31,603 bases of DNA from IMG/VR virus record IMGVR_UViG_3300020475_000689, positions 1 through 31,603 of that record; one strand, given 5' to 3'. Positions 1,387-16,510 of this stretch are shown here, piece by piece. Within the stretch, counting starts at the first letter, position 1, and each line of letters opens with the position of its first letter. The notes beneath the pieces were generated by a model that had not been told where the DNA came from, searched no databases, and was given only the letters and a program-made list of their open reading frames with translations. The translations under genes were made by a program, and so were the position numbers. Source of the DNA: a virus.

Positions 1387-1512
1387 ACAAAAAAACCCAG
1401 AGGGTTCTTATGTTTCGTTCTGGGTTTTTGTCCACTTCCCCTATCGACATTAGGGGGTTGCCGTCACTCTATTTAATTGTATTTCATAATGTATTACCTC
1501 ACTTCAAATTAC
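1387..1512 (-). ncRNA. Candidate minus-strand small RNA, about 125 nt
   Basis: A minus-strand promoter (1519-1548) points into this otherwise geneless stretch, and the bidirectional terminator at 1389-1429 stops it. The predicted RNA starts near 1512. On the minus strand it has a possible 5' stem (ATTGTA with TACAAT), a short hairpin (CCCCTA with TAGGGG, plus-strand 1438-1456) and the terminator hairpin. The longest ATG-started frame seen is four codons, so it looks non-coding. Its target is unknown. Confidence 0.55.
1389..1429. terminator. Bidirectional intrinsic terminator
   Basis: A perfect 11-pair stem, AAAAACCCAGA (1391-1401) with TCTGGGTTTTT (1419-1429), closes a 17-nt loop. On the + strand it ends the 1166-1381 gene with five T. 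On the - strand the stem is followed by seven T (complement of 1389-1395), so it also ends transcripts coming leftward from the minus-strand promoter at 1519-1548. Confidence 0.85.
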
Positions 1513-1518
1513 AATAGT

Positions 1519-1548
1519 ATTATAACAAAATATGTACCTATGGTGCAA
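1519..1548 (-). promoter_or_regulatory. Minus-strand promoter of the ATAGGTACAT family
   Basis: Read on the minus strand: TTGCAC, an 18-nt spacer beginning CATAGGTACAT, then TATAAT. Hexamers, spacer length and position of ATAGGTACAT are the same as in the plus-strand promoters at 10817, 11324 and 13665. It is back-to-back with the rightward late promoter at 1553-1560. Confidence 0.7.
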
Positions 1549-1552
1549 GTGT

Positions 1553-1560
1553 TATAAATA
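1553..1560 (+). promoter_or_regulatory. T4-type late promoter TATAAATA
   Basis: An exact T4 late -10 element. In T4 transcription starts about six bases downstream, which here is the A of the ATG at 1566. No ribosome binding site lies between, so the message would be leaderless or nearly so. Confidence 0.8.
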
Positions 1561-2152: not shown

Positions 2153-2180
2153 TAGACATATATCACTTTTGTGGTATAAT
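2153..2180 (+). promoter_or_regulatory. Extended -10 promoter for uvsY
   Basis: TAGACA, a 16-nt spacer ending TGG, then TATAAT, with six bases to the ATG at 2187. The TGN before the -10 is a classical extended -10. The same layout occurs at 5518, 16483 and 21893. Confidence 0.75.
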
Positions 2181-5517: not shown

Positions 5518-5545
5518 TTGACAAATATCAAATAAGTGAGATAAT
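5518..5545 (+). promoter_or_regulatory. Extended -10 promoter for gp55
   Basis: TTGACA, a 16-nt spacer ending TGA, then GATAAT, five bases before the gp55 ATG at 5551. No Shine-Dalgarno sequence lies between. Confidence 0.75.
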
Positions 5546-10816: not shown

Positions 10817-10846
10817 TTGACCCATAGGTACATAAAGTCGTATAAT
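10817..10846 (+). promoter_or_regulatory. ATAGGTACAT-family promoter for the RNA/tRNA unit
   Basis: TTGACC, an 18-nt spacer beginning CATAGGTACAT, then TATAAT. Predicted start near the G at 10853. It begins immediately after the oxygenase stop codon. The downstream unit contains no protein gene. Confidence 0.82.
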
Positions 10847-10852
10847 ACTCTT

Positions 10853-11155
10853 GTCGTGTGATTGAACTCCTCGTTATGTTGGTTGGTAGGTTGAGAGGAG
10901 ACAGAACGAAGTGAGGATATCGTTTAAAATCTGTGAAATGACAAGACTCTAGCAGATATCCCCATAGTTCGAAATGATTCCAAGAAATCGATTATAGTAG
11001 TCGTGGGATTTGGGTGAAAACGAAGTCACATTATGGTCACTGCCTATTGACCTAGATAAAATTCTGGTAAGGCCAGACTTGAAGGACTCGGTGATAGAAT
11101 GGGGTGTCAAAGTGTTACTAATACACCCTAGAACAAATAGAGATAATACTATACA
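10853..11155 (+). ncRNA. Candidate structured non-coding RNA upstream of tRNAs
   Basis: About 300 bases between a strong promoter and tRNA-Arg with no plausible protein frame. Several perfect helices can be read: CTCCTC (10867) with GAGGAG; GGAT with ATCC enclosing ATCTG with CAGAT (10915-10960); CCAA/ATC with GAT/TTGG around 10980-11020; TCTGG with CCAGA around 11073; GGGTGT with ACACCC around 11101-11130. I tested it by eye against RNase P RNA, tmRNA, SRP RNA and group I intron signatures and found no convincing match. T4 also carries two stable RNAs of unknown role (C and D) beside its tRNAs. It may be a stable RNA or a long processed leader. Confidence 0.5.
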
Positions 11156-11232
11156 GTTCTCATAGCTCAACTGGAGAGAGCATTGGTTTTCTAAACCAAA
11201 GGTTGTAGGTTCGAGTCCTACTGGGAACGCCA
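11156..11232 (+). tRNA. tRNA-Arg(TCT)
   Basis: Complete cloverleaf with encoded CCA. Acceptor GTTCTCA pairs with TGGGAAC (one G-T pair). The anticodon stem TTGGT/ACCAA carries loop TTTCTAA, giving anticodon TCT, which reads AGA. The T-arm contains GGTTCGAGTCC. AGA is the dominant arginine codon in the phage genes here. Confidence 0.96.
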
Positions 11233-11240
11233 ATTCAGAT

Positions 11241-11315
11241 GGTCTGTTAGTTCATCGGTGAGAATACTGCCCTGTCACGGCAGAGAGAAGGGTTCGATTC
11301 CCTTACAGACCGCCA
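11241..11315 (+). tRNA. tRNA-Asp(GTC)
   Basis: Cloverleaf with encoded CCA. Acceptor GGTCTGT pairs with ACAGACC. The anticodon stem CTGCC/GGCAG carries loop CTGTCAC, giving anticodon GTC (aspartate). T-arm GGGTTCGATTCCC. It lies eight bases after tRNA-Arg, probably on the same transcript. Confidence 0.96.
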
Positions 11316-11323
11316 AATATGAT

Positions 11324-11353
11324 TTGACATATAGGTACATTTTTTTATATAAT
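11324..11353 (+). promoter_or_regulatory. ATAGGTACAT-family promoter for the VWA gene
   Basis: TTGACA, an 18-nt spacer beginning TATAGGTACAT, then TATAAT, with six bases before the ATG at 11360. It starts nine bases after tRNA-Asp. Confidence 0.85.
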
Positions 11354-11359
11354 ACATAC

Positions 11360-13672
11360 ATGAGGTCAAATAACGAAACACTTAAAACTAGAAAAAATTC
11401 TCTTGCAAGGTTACTTGCAACTGAGGATTTAGTAATAGAACACAAAAATGTACCTACTGCATATTTTGAGGTTGACTCAAGAAAGTTAGTATGTCCTATT
11501 CTTAAAGATGATATGTCTGCACAACTTTATGACTTGTTTATGGGTCACGAAGTTGGACATGCACTTATCACTCCAGCAGATGGATGGCATGATGCAGTTT
11601 CAGAAAAGGGTGCAACTTACAAAGGATATCTAAATGTCCTTGAAGATGTAAGAATCGAAAAACACATCAAATCAAAATATGCTGGTCTTAGAAAAATCTT
11701 CTTTGATGCATATAAAGAACTACATGAAGATTTAGATTTCTTTGGTGTTCATGGATATGATGTAAACAAACTTGCATTTATAGATAGAATCAATCTTTAC
11801 TTTAAGATTGGTCATTCTCTTATGGTTGAATTTTCTCCAGAAGAACAAAAAATCGTAAATCAAATAAACACTAAAATGGATACTTGGGAAAAGGTAGTCA
11901 AAGTTGCAGACTATCTTTATGAGTTATCTAAACTAGAAAAGTTACAACCACAAACAGATACTTCTGCACAAAGTGTAGAAACATCAGAAGGTGATGGGGA
12001 TGCAATTCCTCAAGACTTTGATGAAAGAGAATCAGAAGAAAATGATACAAATGATTCACTGGGTGGTAACATGGAATCAGAAAATGAGTCTGAGGAAGAA
12101 TCAGAAGATGGTGCAAAAGGTACTGAGTCTACTGATGAAGATTCAGAAGATGGTGAAGATGATGCTGATACATCTACTGGTGAAGGTGATGTTGATAAAT
12201 CACAGAACTTAAGTGGTGGTGAATTTGGTGAAGAAGGTGGTCAAAGTGGTGATGCACCAGTTTCAGATGATGGTGCAAAAGAGTCTATCACTGATAAGAA
12301 TTTCAGAAACAATGAAGACACACTTCAAAAAGAAATGGATAGATACGATTCAGAACCATCTTACATGGAATTCAATTCTAAAGAACACAAAGTAAAAGAT
12401 ATTACAATCCCTTACAAAAAGATGATTTCAGATATCACTAAAGAAATGGAAAATGGTAGAAAAGAATATGAACATTCTACTGATACCCTTGCTAACTCTA
12501 GAGTGTACACTGAAAAGTTTCTTGACCATAACAAAAATGTCATCAACTATATGGCAAAAGAATTTGATATGAGAAAGGCTGCAGATGCTTACAAAAAGTC
12601 AATGTCTGCAAAAACTGGTGAACTGGATATGTCAAAAATCCACCAGTACCTAATCAAAGATGATATCTTCAAAAGAGCAACTATTGTGCCTGATGGAAAA
12701 AATCATGGTGTGATTATGTTGGTTGACTGGTCTGGGTCTATGTTTGATGCAATCAGAGAGACTTACGAACAATCTATAGTTCTTACAATGTTCTGTAGAA
12801 GAGTTGGTATTCCTCATAGAGTGTATGCATTTACAGATGCTTGGAGAGAAGATGTTGATAGAGAGTACAAAGAAATTGAACATGAAAAGTTTAACTATAA
12901 TAGTTCTTTAAGACTTATCGAATTGTTCTCTGATAAAATGAACAAAAGAGATTTCAAAGAATCTTGTGTTGTTATGAATGCACAACTTGAATCAATGTGT
13001 GGTGGTGGTTATTACAGAAGTAATCAAGGTGACAGATTTGAAGCTGGTTATACTCATGAATACAACTATGCATTAGGTGGTACACCTCTTGATGAATCAC
13101 TAATGTTCATAAGAGACTACATTGCAGATTTCAAACATAACTACTCAATCGATAAGTTACAGTTTGTTACTCTAACTGATGGAGACAGTTTCAGAATGAA
13201 TGGTTTCAGAGGTTACAGAAGTGACAACTACATTCATGACAGAAGAACAAAAACTACATTCCTTTATAATGAAGATTATGGAAGGGATGGTACTAATAAC
13301 CTTCTTAAATGGATAGAGAGAACTACTGGTGTTGATACAGTTGGGTTCTTCATTTGTCCTAACAGACATAGAGATTTCGATTCAGCAGTTGACAAGTTCT
13401 CTGGAATTTACAATAACTGGGATGTTAAATCAGAAGGATACAAGTTATTCAGAAGAGAAGGTGGATACTCAGTTTCAACTACTGAAAAGAGTGGATACAA
13501 AGAGTTCTACATTCTAAACAAAAAGAAAATGGGTATCGTTGCAGAAGATGACACTTTAGATGTAGATGCTGGTGCAAGTAAACAAGCATTGAAGGGTGCA
13601 ATGAAAAGAATGGGTAATAACAAAATGTCCCAAAGAAAAATCCTTCAACACTTCGTTAAGAAGGTTGCATGA
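11360..13672 (+). CDS. Zinc-protease-motif/VWA-domain protein (CobT-like)
   Basis: A 770-residue protein combining an N-terminal domain with HEVGH (63-67, HExxH zinc motif, followed by ALITPADGWHDAV), a very acidic, low-complexity linker (about 200-330, runs of E, D, S and G), and a C-terminal von Willebrand A domain with the metal-binding DWSGS (456-460). Marine T4-like phages carry similar proteins, sometimes called cobT-like. Such proteins usually work with a MoxR/CobS AAA+ ATPase, which is the next gene; the target in the phage cycle is unknown. The ATG at 11360 is chosen because TATAAT ends six bases upstream; an earlier in-frame TTG at 11258 falls inside tRNA-Asp and is rejected. No ribosome binding site. 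Confidence 0.85.
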   Translation: MRSNNETLKTRKNSLARLLATEDLVIEHKNVPTAYFEVDSRKLVCPILKDDMSAQLYDLFMGHEVGHALITPADGWHDAVSEKGATYKGYLNVLEDVRIEKHIKSKYAGLRKIFFDAYKELHEDLDFFGVHGYDVNKLAFIDRINLYFKIGHSLMVEFSPEEQKIVNQINTKMDTWEKVVKVADYLYELSKLEKLQPQTDTSAQSVETSEGDGDAIPQDFDERESEENDTNDSLGGNMESENESEEESEDGAKGTESTDEDSEDGEDDADTSTGEGDVDKSQNLSGGEFGEEGGQSGDAPVSDDGAKESITDKNFRNNEDTLQKEMDRYDSEPSYMEFNSKEHKVKDITIPYKKMISDITKEMENGRKEYEHSTDTLANSRVYTEKFLDHNKNVINYMAKEFDMRKAADAYKKSMSAKTGELDMSKIHQYLIKDDIFKRATIVPDGKNHGVIMLVDWSGSMFDAIRETYEQSIVLTMFCRRVGIPHRVYAFTDAWREDVDREYKEIEHEKFNYNSSLRLIELFSDKMNKRDFKESCVVMNAQLESMCGGGYYRSNQGDRFEAGYTHEYNYALGGTPLDESLMFIRDYIADFKHNYSIDKLQFVTLTDGDSFRMNGFRGYRSDNYIHDRRTKTTFLYNEDYGRDGTNNLLKWIERTTGVDTVGFFICPNRHRDFDSAVDKFSGIYNNWDVKSEGYKLFRREGGYSVSTTEKSGYKEFYILNKKKMGIVAEDDTLDVDAGASKQALKGAMKRMGNNKMSQRKILQHFVKKVA

Positions 13673-13694
13673 TAGGTACATATTTTGGTATAAT
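13665..13694 (+). promoter_or_regulatory. ATAGGTACAT-family promoter for the AAA+ gene
   Basis: TTGCAT, an 18-nt spacer beginning GATAGGTACAT and ending TGG, then TATAAT. The -35 lies in the last codons of the VWA gene. The first ATG (13701) is six bases downstream; a second in-frame ATG at 13740 has GAGG five bases upstream. Confidence 0.8.
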
Positions 13695-13739
13695 GTACAC
13701 ATGGTAAAAAATATTAATAATTCAAAAAGTGAGGTAAAT

Positions 13740-14906
13740 ATGAAGTTGAATGCTAATCATTATAGGTTTCTCGATGCATGTGCAGAGCAGTTTCCTAGTC
13801 AAGTCGAATTTTCTAAATCGACAGTTAAAAAAATATGTGACAGGGCAGAGATTCCCTTTCCATCGTGGTTAATTAGAAAACCACAATTCAAAGCAGGTTA
13901 TGGAACTTATTCCATTAAATCTGTAGTTAAAGACCATTATTCCGAATATGCACCAGTTGTTCAAGCTGTTCAAACTGTTGAGACAGTTCCAGTTCCAACA
14001 TCTACTGTTGGTGTGAATGTTCTCGATGAAAACATTTCAGTTATTCCATCAATCATGGGTAACTATGTTCCTTTTGGTCACTTCAAAGACCTTAAGTCAA
14101 TCCTAAAGTCTGGAGTTTTCTTTCCAGTCTTTATTACTGGTCTCAGTGGTAATGGTAAGACTTTGATGGTCGAACAAATTTGTGCAAAACTCAAGAAGGA
14201 ACTTTTCAGAGTTAACATTACTATTGAAACTGATGAAGATGATTTGATTGGTTCAAATACTCTTATCAATGGTAACATTGTTTTTAAAGAAGGCCCTGTC
14301 CTCAAAGCAATGAGAAAAGGTGCAGTATTACTTCTTGATGAAGTTGACCTTGCATCAAACAAGATTATGTGTTTACAGTCTATCCTTGAGGGTGGTGGTT
14401 ACTTAATCAAGAAGACTGGTGAGTTGGTAACTCCATCAGAAGGTTTTACAGTGGTTGCAACTGCAAACACAAAAGGTAAAGGTTCTGAGGATGGAAGATT
14501 CATAGGAACTAATGTTCTTAACGAAGCATTCCTTGAAAGGTTTGCAATTTGTCTTGAACAAGAATATCCACCAGTTGCAACTGAGAAGAAAATTGTCAAA
14601 GGTGACTTTGCAATTCTTGGAGTCAGTGATGATGAGTTTGCAAACAAACTTGTTGACTGGGCAGATGTAATCAGAAAATCTTTTTACGAGGGTGCAGTCG
14701 ATGAGGTGATTTCAACTAGAAGGTTGGTTCACATTGCAAAAGCATTCTCAATGTTCAATGATAAAATGAAATCAATAGAGGTTTGTCTTGCAAGGTTCGA
14801 TGAAGATACCAAAGCAACATTCCTTGACCTTTATACAAAGGTTGATGAAAACATCTTAGGTCAAGATGATAACAACTTAGAGGAAGAAGATGGACTCAAC
14901 ATATAG
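13740..14906 (+). CDS. MoxR/CobS-like AAA+ ATPase
   Basis: An AAA+ ATPase of the MoxR/CobS type, commonly annotated cobS in cyanophages although cobalamin synthesis is unlikely here. From the 13740 start (388 aa): an N-terminal domain (NHYRFLDACAEQFPSQV), Walker A GLSGNGKT at 134-141, Walker B LLLDEVDLA near 197-205, a sensor-1 region VVATANTKGKG, and an arginine-finger region NEAFLERF. MoxR ATPases typically remodel a target together with a VWA protein, which is encoded directly upstream. I prefer 13740 because GAGG lies five bases before it; 13701 adds 13 residues and would be leaderless. The C-terminus overlaps the next gene by 17 bases. Confidence 0.87.
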   Translation: MKLNANHYRFLDACAEQFPSQVEFSKSTVKKICDRAEIPFPSWLIRKPQFKAGYGTYSIKSVVKDHYSEYAPVVQAVQTVETVPVPTSTVGVNVLDENISVIPSIMGNYVPFGHFKDLKSILKSGVFFPVFITGLSGNGKTLMVEQICAKLKKELFRVNITIETDEDDLIGSNTLINGNIVFKEGPVLKAMRKGAVLLLDEVDLASNKIMCLQSILEGGGYLIKKTGELVTPSEGFTVVATANTKGKGSEDGRFIGTNVLNEAFLERFAICLEQEYPPVATEKKIVKGDFAILGVSDDEFANKLVDWADVIRKSFYEGAVDEVISTRRLVHIAKAFSMFNDKMKSIEVCLARFDEDTKATFLDLYTKVDENILGQDDNNLEEEDGLNI

Positions 14907-16345: not shown

Positions 16346-16493
16346 TAAAGGATGGCAAGACTCGTCTGATGGATGGGTATCTACTATGAATAAGTCTAAA
16401 GAGAATAAAGAAAAATATAAAAAATACTTATCTACAACTGATAAACCATTACCATATAGGGATTGGTTAAAAGAACAAAGAGTTGACAAATAA
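16323..16493 (+). CDS. Small hypothetical protein (56 aa)
   Basis: An ORF from ATG 16323 to TAA 16491-16493. It overlaps the end of the hydrolase gene by 23 bases and fills the gap before the next promoter. The product is hydrophilic and lysine-rich, with GWQDSSDGW near the start and KPLPYRDWLKEQ at the end. A second ATG at 16386 has no better ribosome binding site. No function can be assigned; it is listed because it is uninterrupted, in strand, and codon use resembles its neighbours. The -35 of the next promoter lies in its last codons. Confidence 0.5.
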   Translation: MNTYFTNSKGWQDSSDGWVSTMNKSKENKEKYKKYLSTTDKPLPYRDWLKEQRVDK

Positions 16494-16510
16494 GGATTTT
16501 GTGAGATAAT
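16483..16510 (+). promoter_or_regulatory. Extended -10 promoter for DUF3310/gp45
   Basis: TTGACA, a 16-nt spacer ending TGA, then GATAAT, six bases before the ATG at 16517. The same class as the uvsY, gp55 and 21893 promoters. Confidence 0.75.

What the first reader, a model, noticed from the sequence alone, without database searches (positions are those of the whole stretch)
10817..13694. Promoter family with ATAGGTACAT fixed in an 18-bp spacer
Promoters at 10817, 11324 and 13665, plus one on the minus strand at 1519-1548, all have TTG-type -35, spacer of exactly 18, ATAGGTACAT starting two bases after the -35 and seven bases before TATAAT. Four copies with identical spacing cannot be chance. 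They drive a non-coding RNA/tRNA unit, the VWA gene, the MoxR gene and a minus-strand RNA. The motif is a likely binding site for a phage or host activator or repressor, a counterpart of the T4 MotA middle-promoter system.
Basis: seen in the sequence. Interest (0 to 1): 0.78.

Follow-up and report, generated by a model that had tools for sequence, protein, structure and literature searches.

The report
Phage promoters sharing a spacer motif
A group of uncultured ocean viruses of bacteria related to phage T4 marks about ten of its gene switches per genome with the same short DNA word, always at exactly the same place between the two standard promoter boxes, which suggests a virus-specific protein reads it, although that protein has not been found.

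Summary
Four promoters (1519-1548 -, 10817-10846 +, 11324-11353 +, 13665-13694 +) are TTGNNN-N-ATAGGTACAT-N7-TATAAT with an 18-bp spacer; 0.01 matches are expected by chance. The pattern is a clade-wide promoter class of marine T4-like phages: 44 distinct sequences have exactly this spacing, against 0-2 for any other. A 146-kb relative has 11 sites. In VWA promoters collected by protein, GGTACA at -26 to -21 is invariant (20/20), while exact TTGACA occurs in 8/20. The exact motif is essentially absent from 257 Gb of cellular genomes. Each genome tends to its own variant, suggesting a lineage-specific trans-acting factor.

'Counterpart of MotA' is not supported. The motif sits inside the spacer and -35 is kept; no MotA or AsiA homologue is found in four related records of 114-151 kb (T4 control 72-74). 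Orthologues of T4 middle genes carry a second class instead, TTGACA-16-extended -10. The motif class heads VWA, cobS, RNA/tRNA and small ORFans, which looks early. Likely mechanism: a third promoter element read by a phage protein with host sigma70-RNAP (about 0.5); an early-promoter repressor is the main rival.

The parts
1519..1548 (-). class B promoter TTGCAC-C-ATAGGTACAT-ATTTTGT-TATAAT; expected +1 about 1512
10817..10846 (+). class B promoter TTGACC-C-ATAGGTACAT-AAAGTCG-TATAAT; expected +1 about 10853
11324..11353 (+). class B promoter TTGACA-T-ATAGGTACAT-TTTTTTA-TATAAT; expected +1 about 11360, the A of the VWA ATG
13665..13694 (+). class B promoter TTGCAT-G-ATAGGTACAT-ATTTTGG-TATAAT, overlapping the end of the VWA gene; expected +1 about 13701
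1391..1512 (-). putative short RNA from the minus-strand promoter: SD-like AGTGAGG, 4-codon ORF, hairpin, terminator-like hairpin
1553..1560 (+). T4-type late promoter TATAAATA back to back with the minus-strand class B promoter, ahead of the tail tube gene (1566-2147)
10853..11155 (+). conserved RNA of unknown family at the head of the RNA/tRNA unit
11156..11232 (+). tRNA-Arg (TCT)
11241..11315 (+). tRNA-Asp (GTC)
11360..13672 (+). VWA protein (phrog_459 'peptidase'); ATG 6 nt after TATAAT, so the mRNA is predicted leaderless
13740..14906 (+). CobS/MoxR-type AAA+ ATPase (phrog_249; Pfam AAA_5, CbbQ_C), with an in-frame upstream ATG at 13701
2153..2180 (+). contrasting class A promoter (16-bp spacer, extended -10) ahead of uvsY (2187)
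5518..5545 (+). contrasting class A promoter ahead of late sigma gp55 (5551)
16483..16510 (+). contrasting class A promoter ahead of a 97-aa gene that precedes the clamp gene

Best explanation
These are members of a pre-replicative promoter class ('class B') of a clade of marine T4-like phages: TTGACN-N-nnRGGTRCAY-N7-TATAAT with a fixed 18-bp spacer and about 4-11 copies per sampled genome. Shown: fixed architecture, clade specificity, invariance of GGTACA in the VWA promoter, and lineage-specific variants. Inferred: the spacer core at -26 to -20 is a third recognition element contacted by a phage-encoded, probably monomeric DNA-binding protein. It would act together with host sigma70-RNAP, which still uses -35 and -10, to switch on VWA/cobS, the RNA/tRNA unit and small early-type ORFs. 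Also inferred: these are early promoters, whereas replication and recombination genes use class A (TTGACA-16-extended -10) and virion genes use TATAAATA.
For: Spacing is exact in 44 distinct sequences, against 0-2 for other spacings. Promoters collected by protein show GGTACA 20/20, TTGACA 8/20 and TATAAT 18/20, so the core is better kept than -35. Information drops to about 0 outside -36 to -6, so recent copying of a longer cassette does not explain it. G001 has 11 sites scoring 19-40 bits with a gap to 9.4. Exact ATAGGTACAT is in this context 4/4 times in the window and 6/7 times in G001. Variants cluster by genome (permutation p 0.001). Cellular genomes lack it apart from phage contigs binned in one MAG and chance-level hits. 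HTVC008M and P-RSM1 lack it. The gene sets of the two classes differ.
Against: No protein candidate was identified. Retention of -35 and the position between -35 and -10 also fit a repressor operator. Expression timing is unknown. Variant homogeneity could partly come from recombination between promoters, and it is not complete: the cobS promoter is ATGGGTACAC in both G001 and G011. The site set was pre-filtered on the core, so only measures core conservation without motif selection.
Confidence: 0.5

Rival explanations
1. The motif is an operator: a phage-encoded repressor binds between -35 and -10 of strong early promoters and shuts them off when middle and late transcription begin.
For: The position inside the RNAP footprint is classic for repression. 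-35 and -10 are near-consensus and could work unaided in several copies. The genes look early.
Against: Operators usually tolerate shifts of a few bp, but here no shifted copy exists. The core is better conserved than -35. The element is a 10-bp non-palindromic word, unlike most dimeric operators.
Confidence: 0.27
2. The host's own RNA polymerase or a host regulator reads the spacer element; the phage mimics a host promoter type.
For: Both hexamers are host-like. The host is unknown, so a degenerate host version cannot be excluded.
Against: An exact scan of 84,980 species (257 Gb) gave 8 hits, none recurrent in a cellular genome except phage contigs in one MAG. Related phages of picocyanobacteria and SAR11 lack it. 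Variants differ between phage lineages.
Confidence: 0.1
3. The similarity reflects spread of a mobile promoter cassette (as proposed for PeSLs of T4-type phages) or a structural constraint of an 18-bp spacer, without a dedicated reader.
For: T4-type phages are reported to shuffle promoter cassettes (cited in PMC4503421). G013 shows an 18-bp class with a looser spacer.
Against: Flanks are unrelated between sites. Orthologous promoters keep the core while the rest diverges. A purely structural constraint would not fix GGTACA.
Confidence: 0.13

Closest known systems
T4 MotA/AsiA middle promoters (sigma appropriation; PMC2988021)
   Same: A short phage-specific word at a near-fixed distance upstream of a sigma70 -10, shared by a set of pre-late promoters.
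   Different: The MotA box (TGCTTtA) is centred at -30 and replaces -35; here the word is at -29 to -20 and -35 is kept. No MotA or AsiA homologue found. Orthologues of T4 middle genes carry another class.
T4-type early promoters with phage-specific consensus (RB49, RB43, Aeh1, 44RR, RB69; PMC1524935)
   Same: Near-consensus -35 and -10; they head novel ORFs and tRNAs; each phage has its own logo; RB49, RB43 and Aeh1 also lack MotA and a recognisable middle consensus.
   Different: The described early logos centre on the -35, upstream A-rich and -10/GT-rich regions; in the passages read I found no report of an invariant word in the middle of the spacer, nor of a strict 18-bp spacer.
MerR-type spacer-bound activation (from general knowledge, not tested)
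   Same: The regulator site lies between -35 and -10 in a longer than optimal spacer.
   Different: MerR operators are palindromic and centred in 19-20 bp spacers; here the word is non-palindromic, off-centre, in an 18-bp spacer.

Membership tests
T4 MotA-dependent middle promoters | MotA box TGCTTtA centred near -30 replacing -35 | tested here: not met
   -35 TTG retained; the conserved word is GGTACAY at -26 to -20
T4 MotA-dependent middle promoters | phage encodes MotA (PF09114, PF09158) | tested here: not met
   0 of 6 records: four related virus records, HTVC008M, P-RSM1; T4 control rings at 3e-63 and 7e-71. The related records may be incomplete, and the 31.6-kb window record was not itself searched
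T4 MotA-dependent middle promoters | phage encodes AsiA (PF09010) | tested here: not met
   0 of 6 records; T4 control 2e-43
T4 MotA-dependent middle promoters | heads replication and recombination genes | tested here: not met
   uvsY, gp55, uvsX, gp43, primase and RNase H carry class A instead
T4-type early promoters | near-consensus sigma70 -35 and -10 | tested here: met
   information profile
T4-type early promoters | heads small novel ORFs and tRNAs | tested here: met
T4-type early promoters | TGn extended -10 | tested here: not met
   -14 is unconserved in class B; class A has it
T4-type early promoters | transcribed immediately after infection by host RNAP alone | not testable with these tools
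   no culture, no transcriptome
PeSL promoter cassettes | early promoter joined to a stem-loop, mobile as a unit | tested here: inconclusive
   flanks show no shared sequence; stem-loops were not scored at each site

The most novel reading that the evidence does not exclude
A lineage of marine T4-like phages uses a three-part promoter (-35, an invariant spacer word, -10) whose middle part is read by an unknown phage protein bound within the RNAP footprint. That word has diverged between phage lineages together with its reader.
Probability: 0.4. Interest if true: 0.75.

Novelty: new variant of a known kind. Interest (0 to 1): 0.52.

Why it matters
Published attempts to find middle and late promoters in SAR11 myophages failed (PMC7029224), and T4-like phages without MotA have no recognised middle-promoter signal (PMC1524935). 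A sharply defined motif with about 4-11 sites per sampled genome would let uncultured phage genomes be divided into expression classes from sequence alone. It also points to an unknown transcription factor acting between the two promoter boxes. The class is testable now: the 30-bp promoter is a ready-made bait.

Tried and rejected
Chance: rejected. Host consensus: exact scan of cellular genomes gave only chance-like hits and phage contigs in one MAG. Alternative spacings: 0-2 each and unrelated contexts. Displaced copies of the element: none found near promoters except two G012 copies overlapping -10/+1 (TATAATAGGTACATG), probably coincidence with the start codon context. MotA, AsiA: no homologue found (with T4 control 72-74). 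RNA families for the RNAs: none in Rfam. Literature for the motif: nothing relevant. A short-query blastn in the phage collection gave only hits with E about 2 among those listed. PeSL and Syn9 transcriptome papers were not held. LexA- and NtcA-type cyanobacterial boxes were considered from memory and set aside because no second half-site exists; not formally tested.

Full report
Observation. The four promoters are real and exact: 1519-1548 (-), 10817-10846, 11324-11353 and 13665-13694 (+), each TTG..., one base, ATAGGTACAT, seven bases, TATAAT, i.e. an 18-bp spacer. With three mismatches allowed there are still only these four, and 0.01 are expected. The 10-mer alone with two mismatches is no more frequent than chance, so the signal lies in the combination. 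The window is a 31.6-kb virus record with T4-type genes: major head protein, tail tube, uvsY, UvsW-like helicase, gp55, gp46-like, clamp and clamp loader, and the VWA/CobS pair. The closest cultured relatives are Pelagibacter phage HTVC008M and cyanophages, at only about 30% protein identity for the VWA protein.

It is a family, not a coincidence. An IMG/VR scan for ATAGGTACAT-N7-TATAAT, which does not ask for a -35, gave 109 stretches. Most carry TTG exactly where the -35 should be. Letting both gaps vary, 44 distinct sequences have exactly the observed spacing and no other spacing has more than two, all in unrelated contexts. A 146-kb relative (G001) has 11 sites at 19-40 bits; the next best scores 9.4, as in shuffles. 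HTVC008M and P-RSM1 have none.

Test without motif selection. I collected VWA-gene loci by protein similarity and read what precedes the gene. In 20 distinct promoters of the clade, GGTACA at -26 to -21 and T at -17 to -15 are invariant, TATAAT is exact in 18, but TTGACA is exact in only 8. More distant VWA relatives (52-55% identity) keep GGTACAT or GGTGCAT, and those below about 42% mostly lose it. Across sites of four genomes, information falls to about zero outside -36 to -6, so this is not a recently copied longer cassette. That site set was filtered on the core, so only measures core conservation without that filter.

Lineage-specific variants. G012 uses mostly TAGGGTACAT, G011 ATGGGTRCAY, G001 mostly ATAGGTACAT. 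Sites within a genome are more alike than between genomes (permutation p 0.001). A still more distant record (G013) has an 18-bp class with looser spacer, about TTGACA-AWGSNNNNCAY-TTTTT (read by eye). I read this as an old 18-bp class in which GGTRCAY became fixed in one clade. A reader protein that diverges with its site explains this best; recombination between promoters could contribute.

Three promoter classes. In window, G001, G011 and G012 a second class, TTGACA-16-extended -10, heads uvsY, gp55, primase, uvsX, gp43, RNase H and a 97-aa gene before the clamp, i.e. orthologues of T4 middle genes by function (identified by PHROGs or Pfam for uvsY, gp55 and the clamp, by eye for the rest); TATAAATA late promoters precede the tail tube gene and other genes. 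The motif class heads VWA, cobS, the RNA/tRNA unit, and ORFs of about 60-130 aa. By gene content it looks early. Many promoters of both classes have ATG exactly 6 nt after the -10, so many of these mRNAs are predicted to be leaderless; not verified.

Not MotA. MotA boxes replace -35 and are centred at -30 (PMC2988021). Here -35 is kept and the word is at -29 to -20. MotA and AsiA profiles find nothing in four related virus records, HTVC008M and P-RSM1, while the same searches ring strongly in T4. Lack of MotA is not unusual: RB49, RB43 and Aeh1 also lack it (PMC1524935).

Host or phage reader. The full pattern occurs 8 times in 257 Gb of cellular genomes; one hit is a phage contig binned with a Synechococcus MAG (same RNA, VWA, CobS), whose bin holds seven such sites at up to two mismatches on three contigs. 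The rest look like chance. A host regulon of this form is therefore unlikely, though a degenerate one in an unknown host is not excluded.

Mechanism. Most likely (0.5) an integral third element read by a phage protein with host RNAP. Main rival (0.27): a repressor operator. Fixed spacing and a core better conserved than -35 favour the former; position within the RNAP footprint and intact hexamers fit the latter. The reader protein was not found.

Limits. No expression data, no host, possibly incomplete virus records, and simple motif statistics (PWM scores against mononucleotide shuffles).

Noticed in passing
window 10853-11155: Conserved RNA of about 285-315 nt at the head of the RNA/tRNA unit; 12 distinct homologues with 73% invariant columns, no Rfam match, no identity found.
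   Followed up: partly
window 1391-1512 (-); L014, L018, L041, L045, L080: Short RNA in the gap between major head and tail tube genes: SD-like AGTGAGG, an ORF of 2-4 codons, then a hairpin whose loop (GTCG) could pair with downstream CGAC/TGAC (possible pseudoknot), then a terminator-like hairpin.
   Followed up: partly
L022, L070; G001 136276-136305 (+): A different conserved RNA driven by the same promoter class (ACTCTTGTAATTGAGAATTACC...), which in L070 contains a tRNA T-arm-like stretch (GGTTCGAATCC); ARAGORN finds no tRNA or tmRNA there.
   Followed up: partly
window 11360 and 2187; G001, G011, G012: Recurrent ATG exactly 6 nt after the -10 box in both pre-replicative classes: predicted leaderless mRNAs for VWA, uvsY, primase, gp43.
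   Followed up: partly
window 2153, 5518, 16483, 21893; Second promoter class TTGACA-16-bp spacer with extended -10 (TGTGGTATAAT / ATGAGATAAT) heading orthologues of T4 middle genes; HTVC008M has a 17-bp counterpart.
   Followed up: partly
L116 (Synechococcus sp. CPC35 MAG, contig NYUU01000005.1): Phage contigs of this clade are binned into a GTDB Synechococcus species genome; seven sites of the class at up to two mismatches on three contigs.
   Followed up: partly
G001 (146-kb relative) 54525-54974, 75492-75710: Small proteins that look by eye like an IscU/NifU-type scaffold and an acyl carrier protein in a phage genome; not searched.
   Followed up: no
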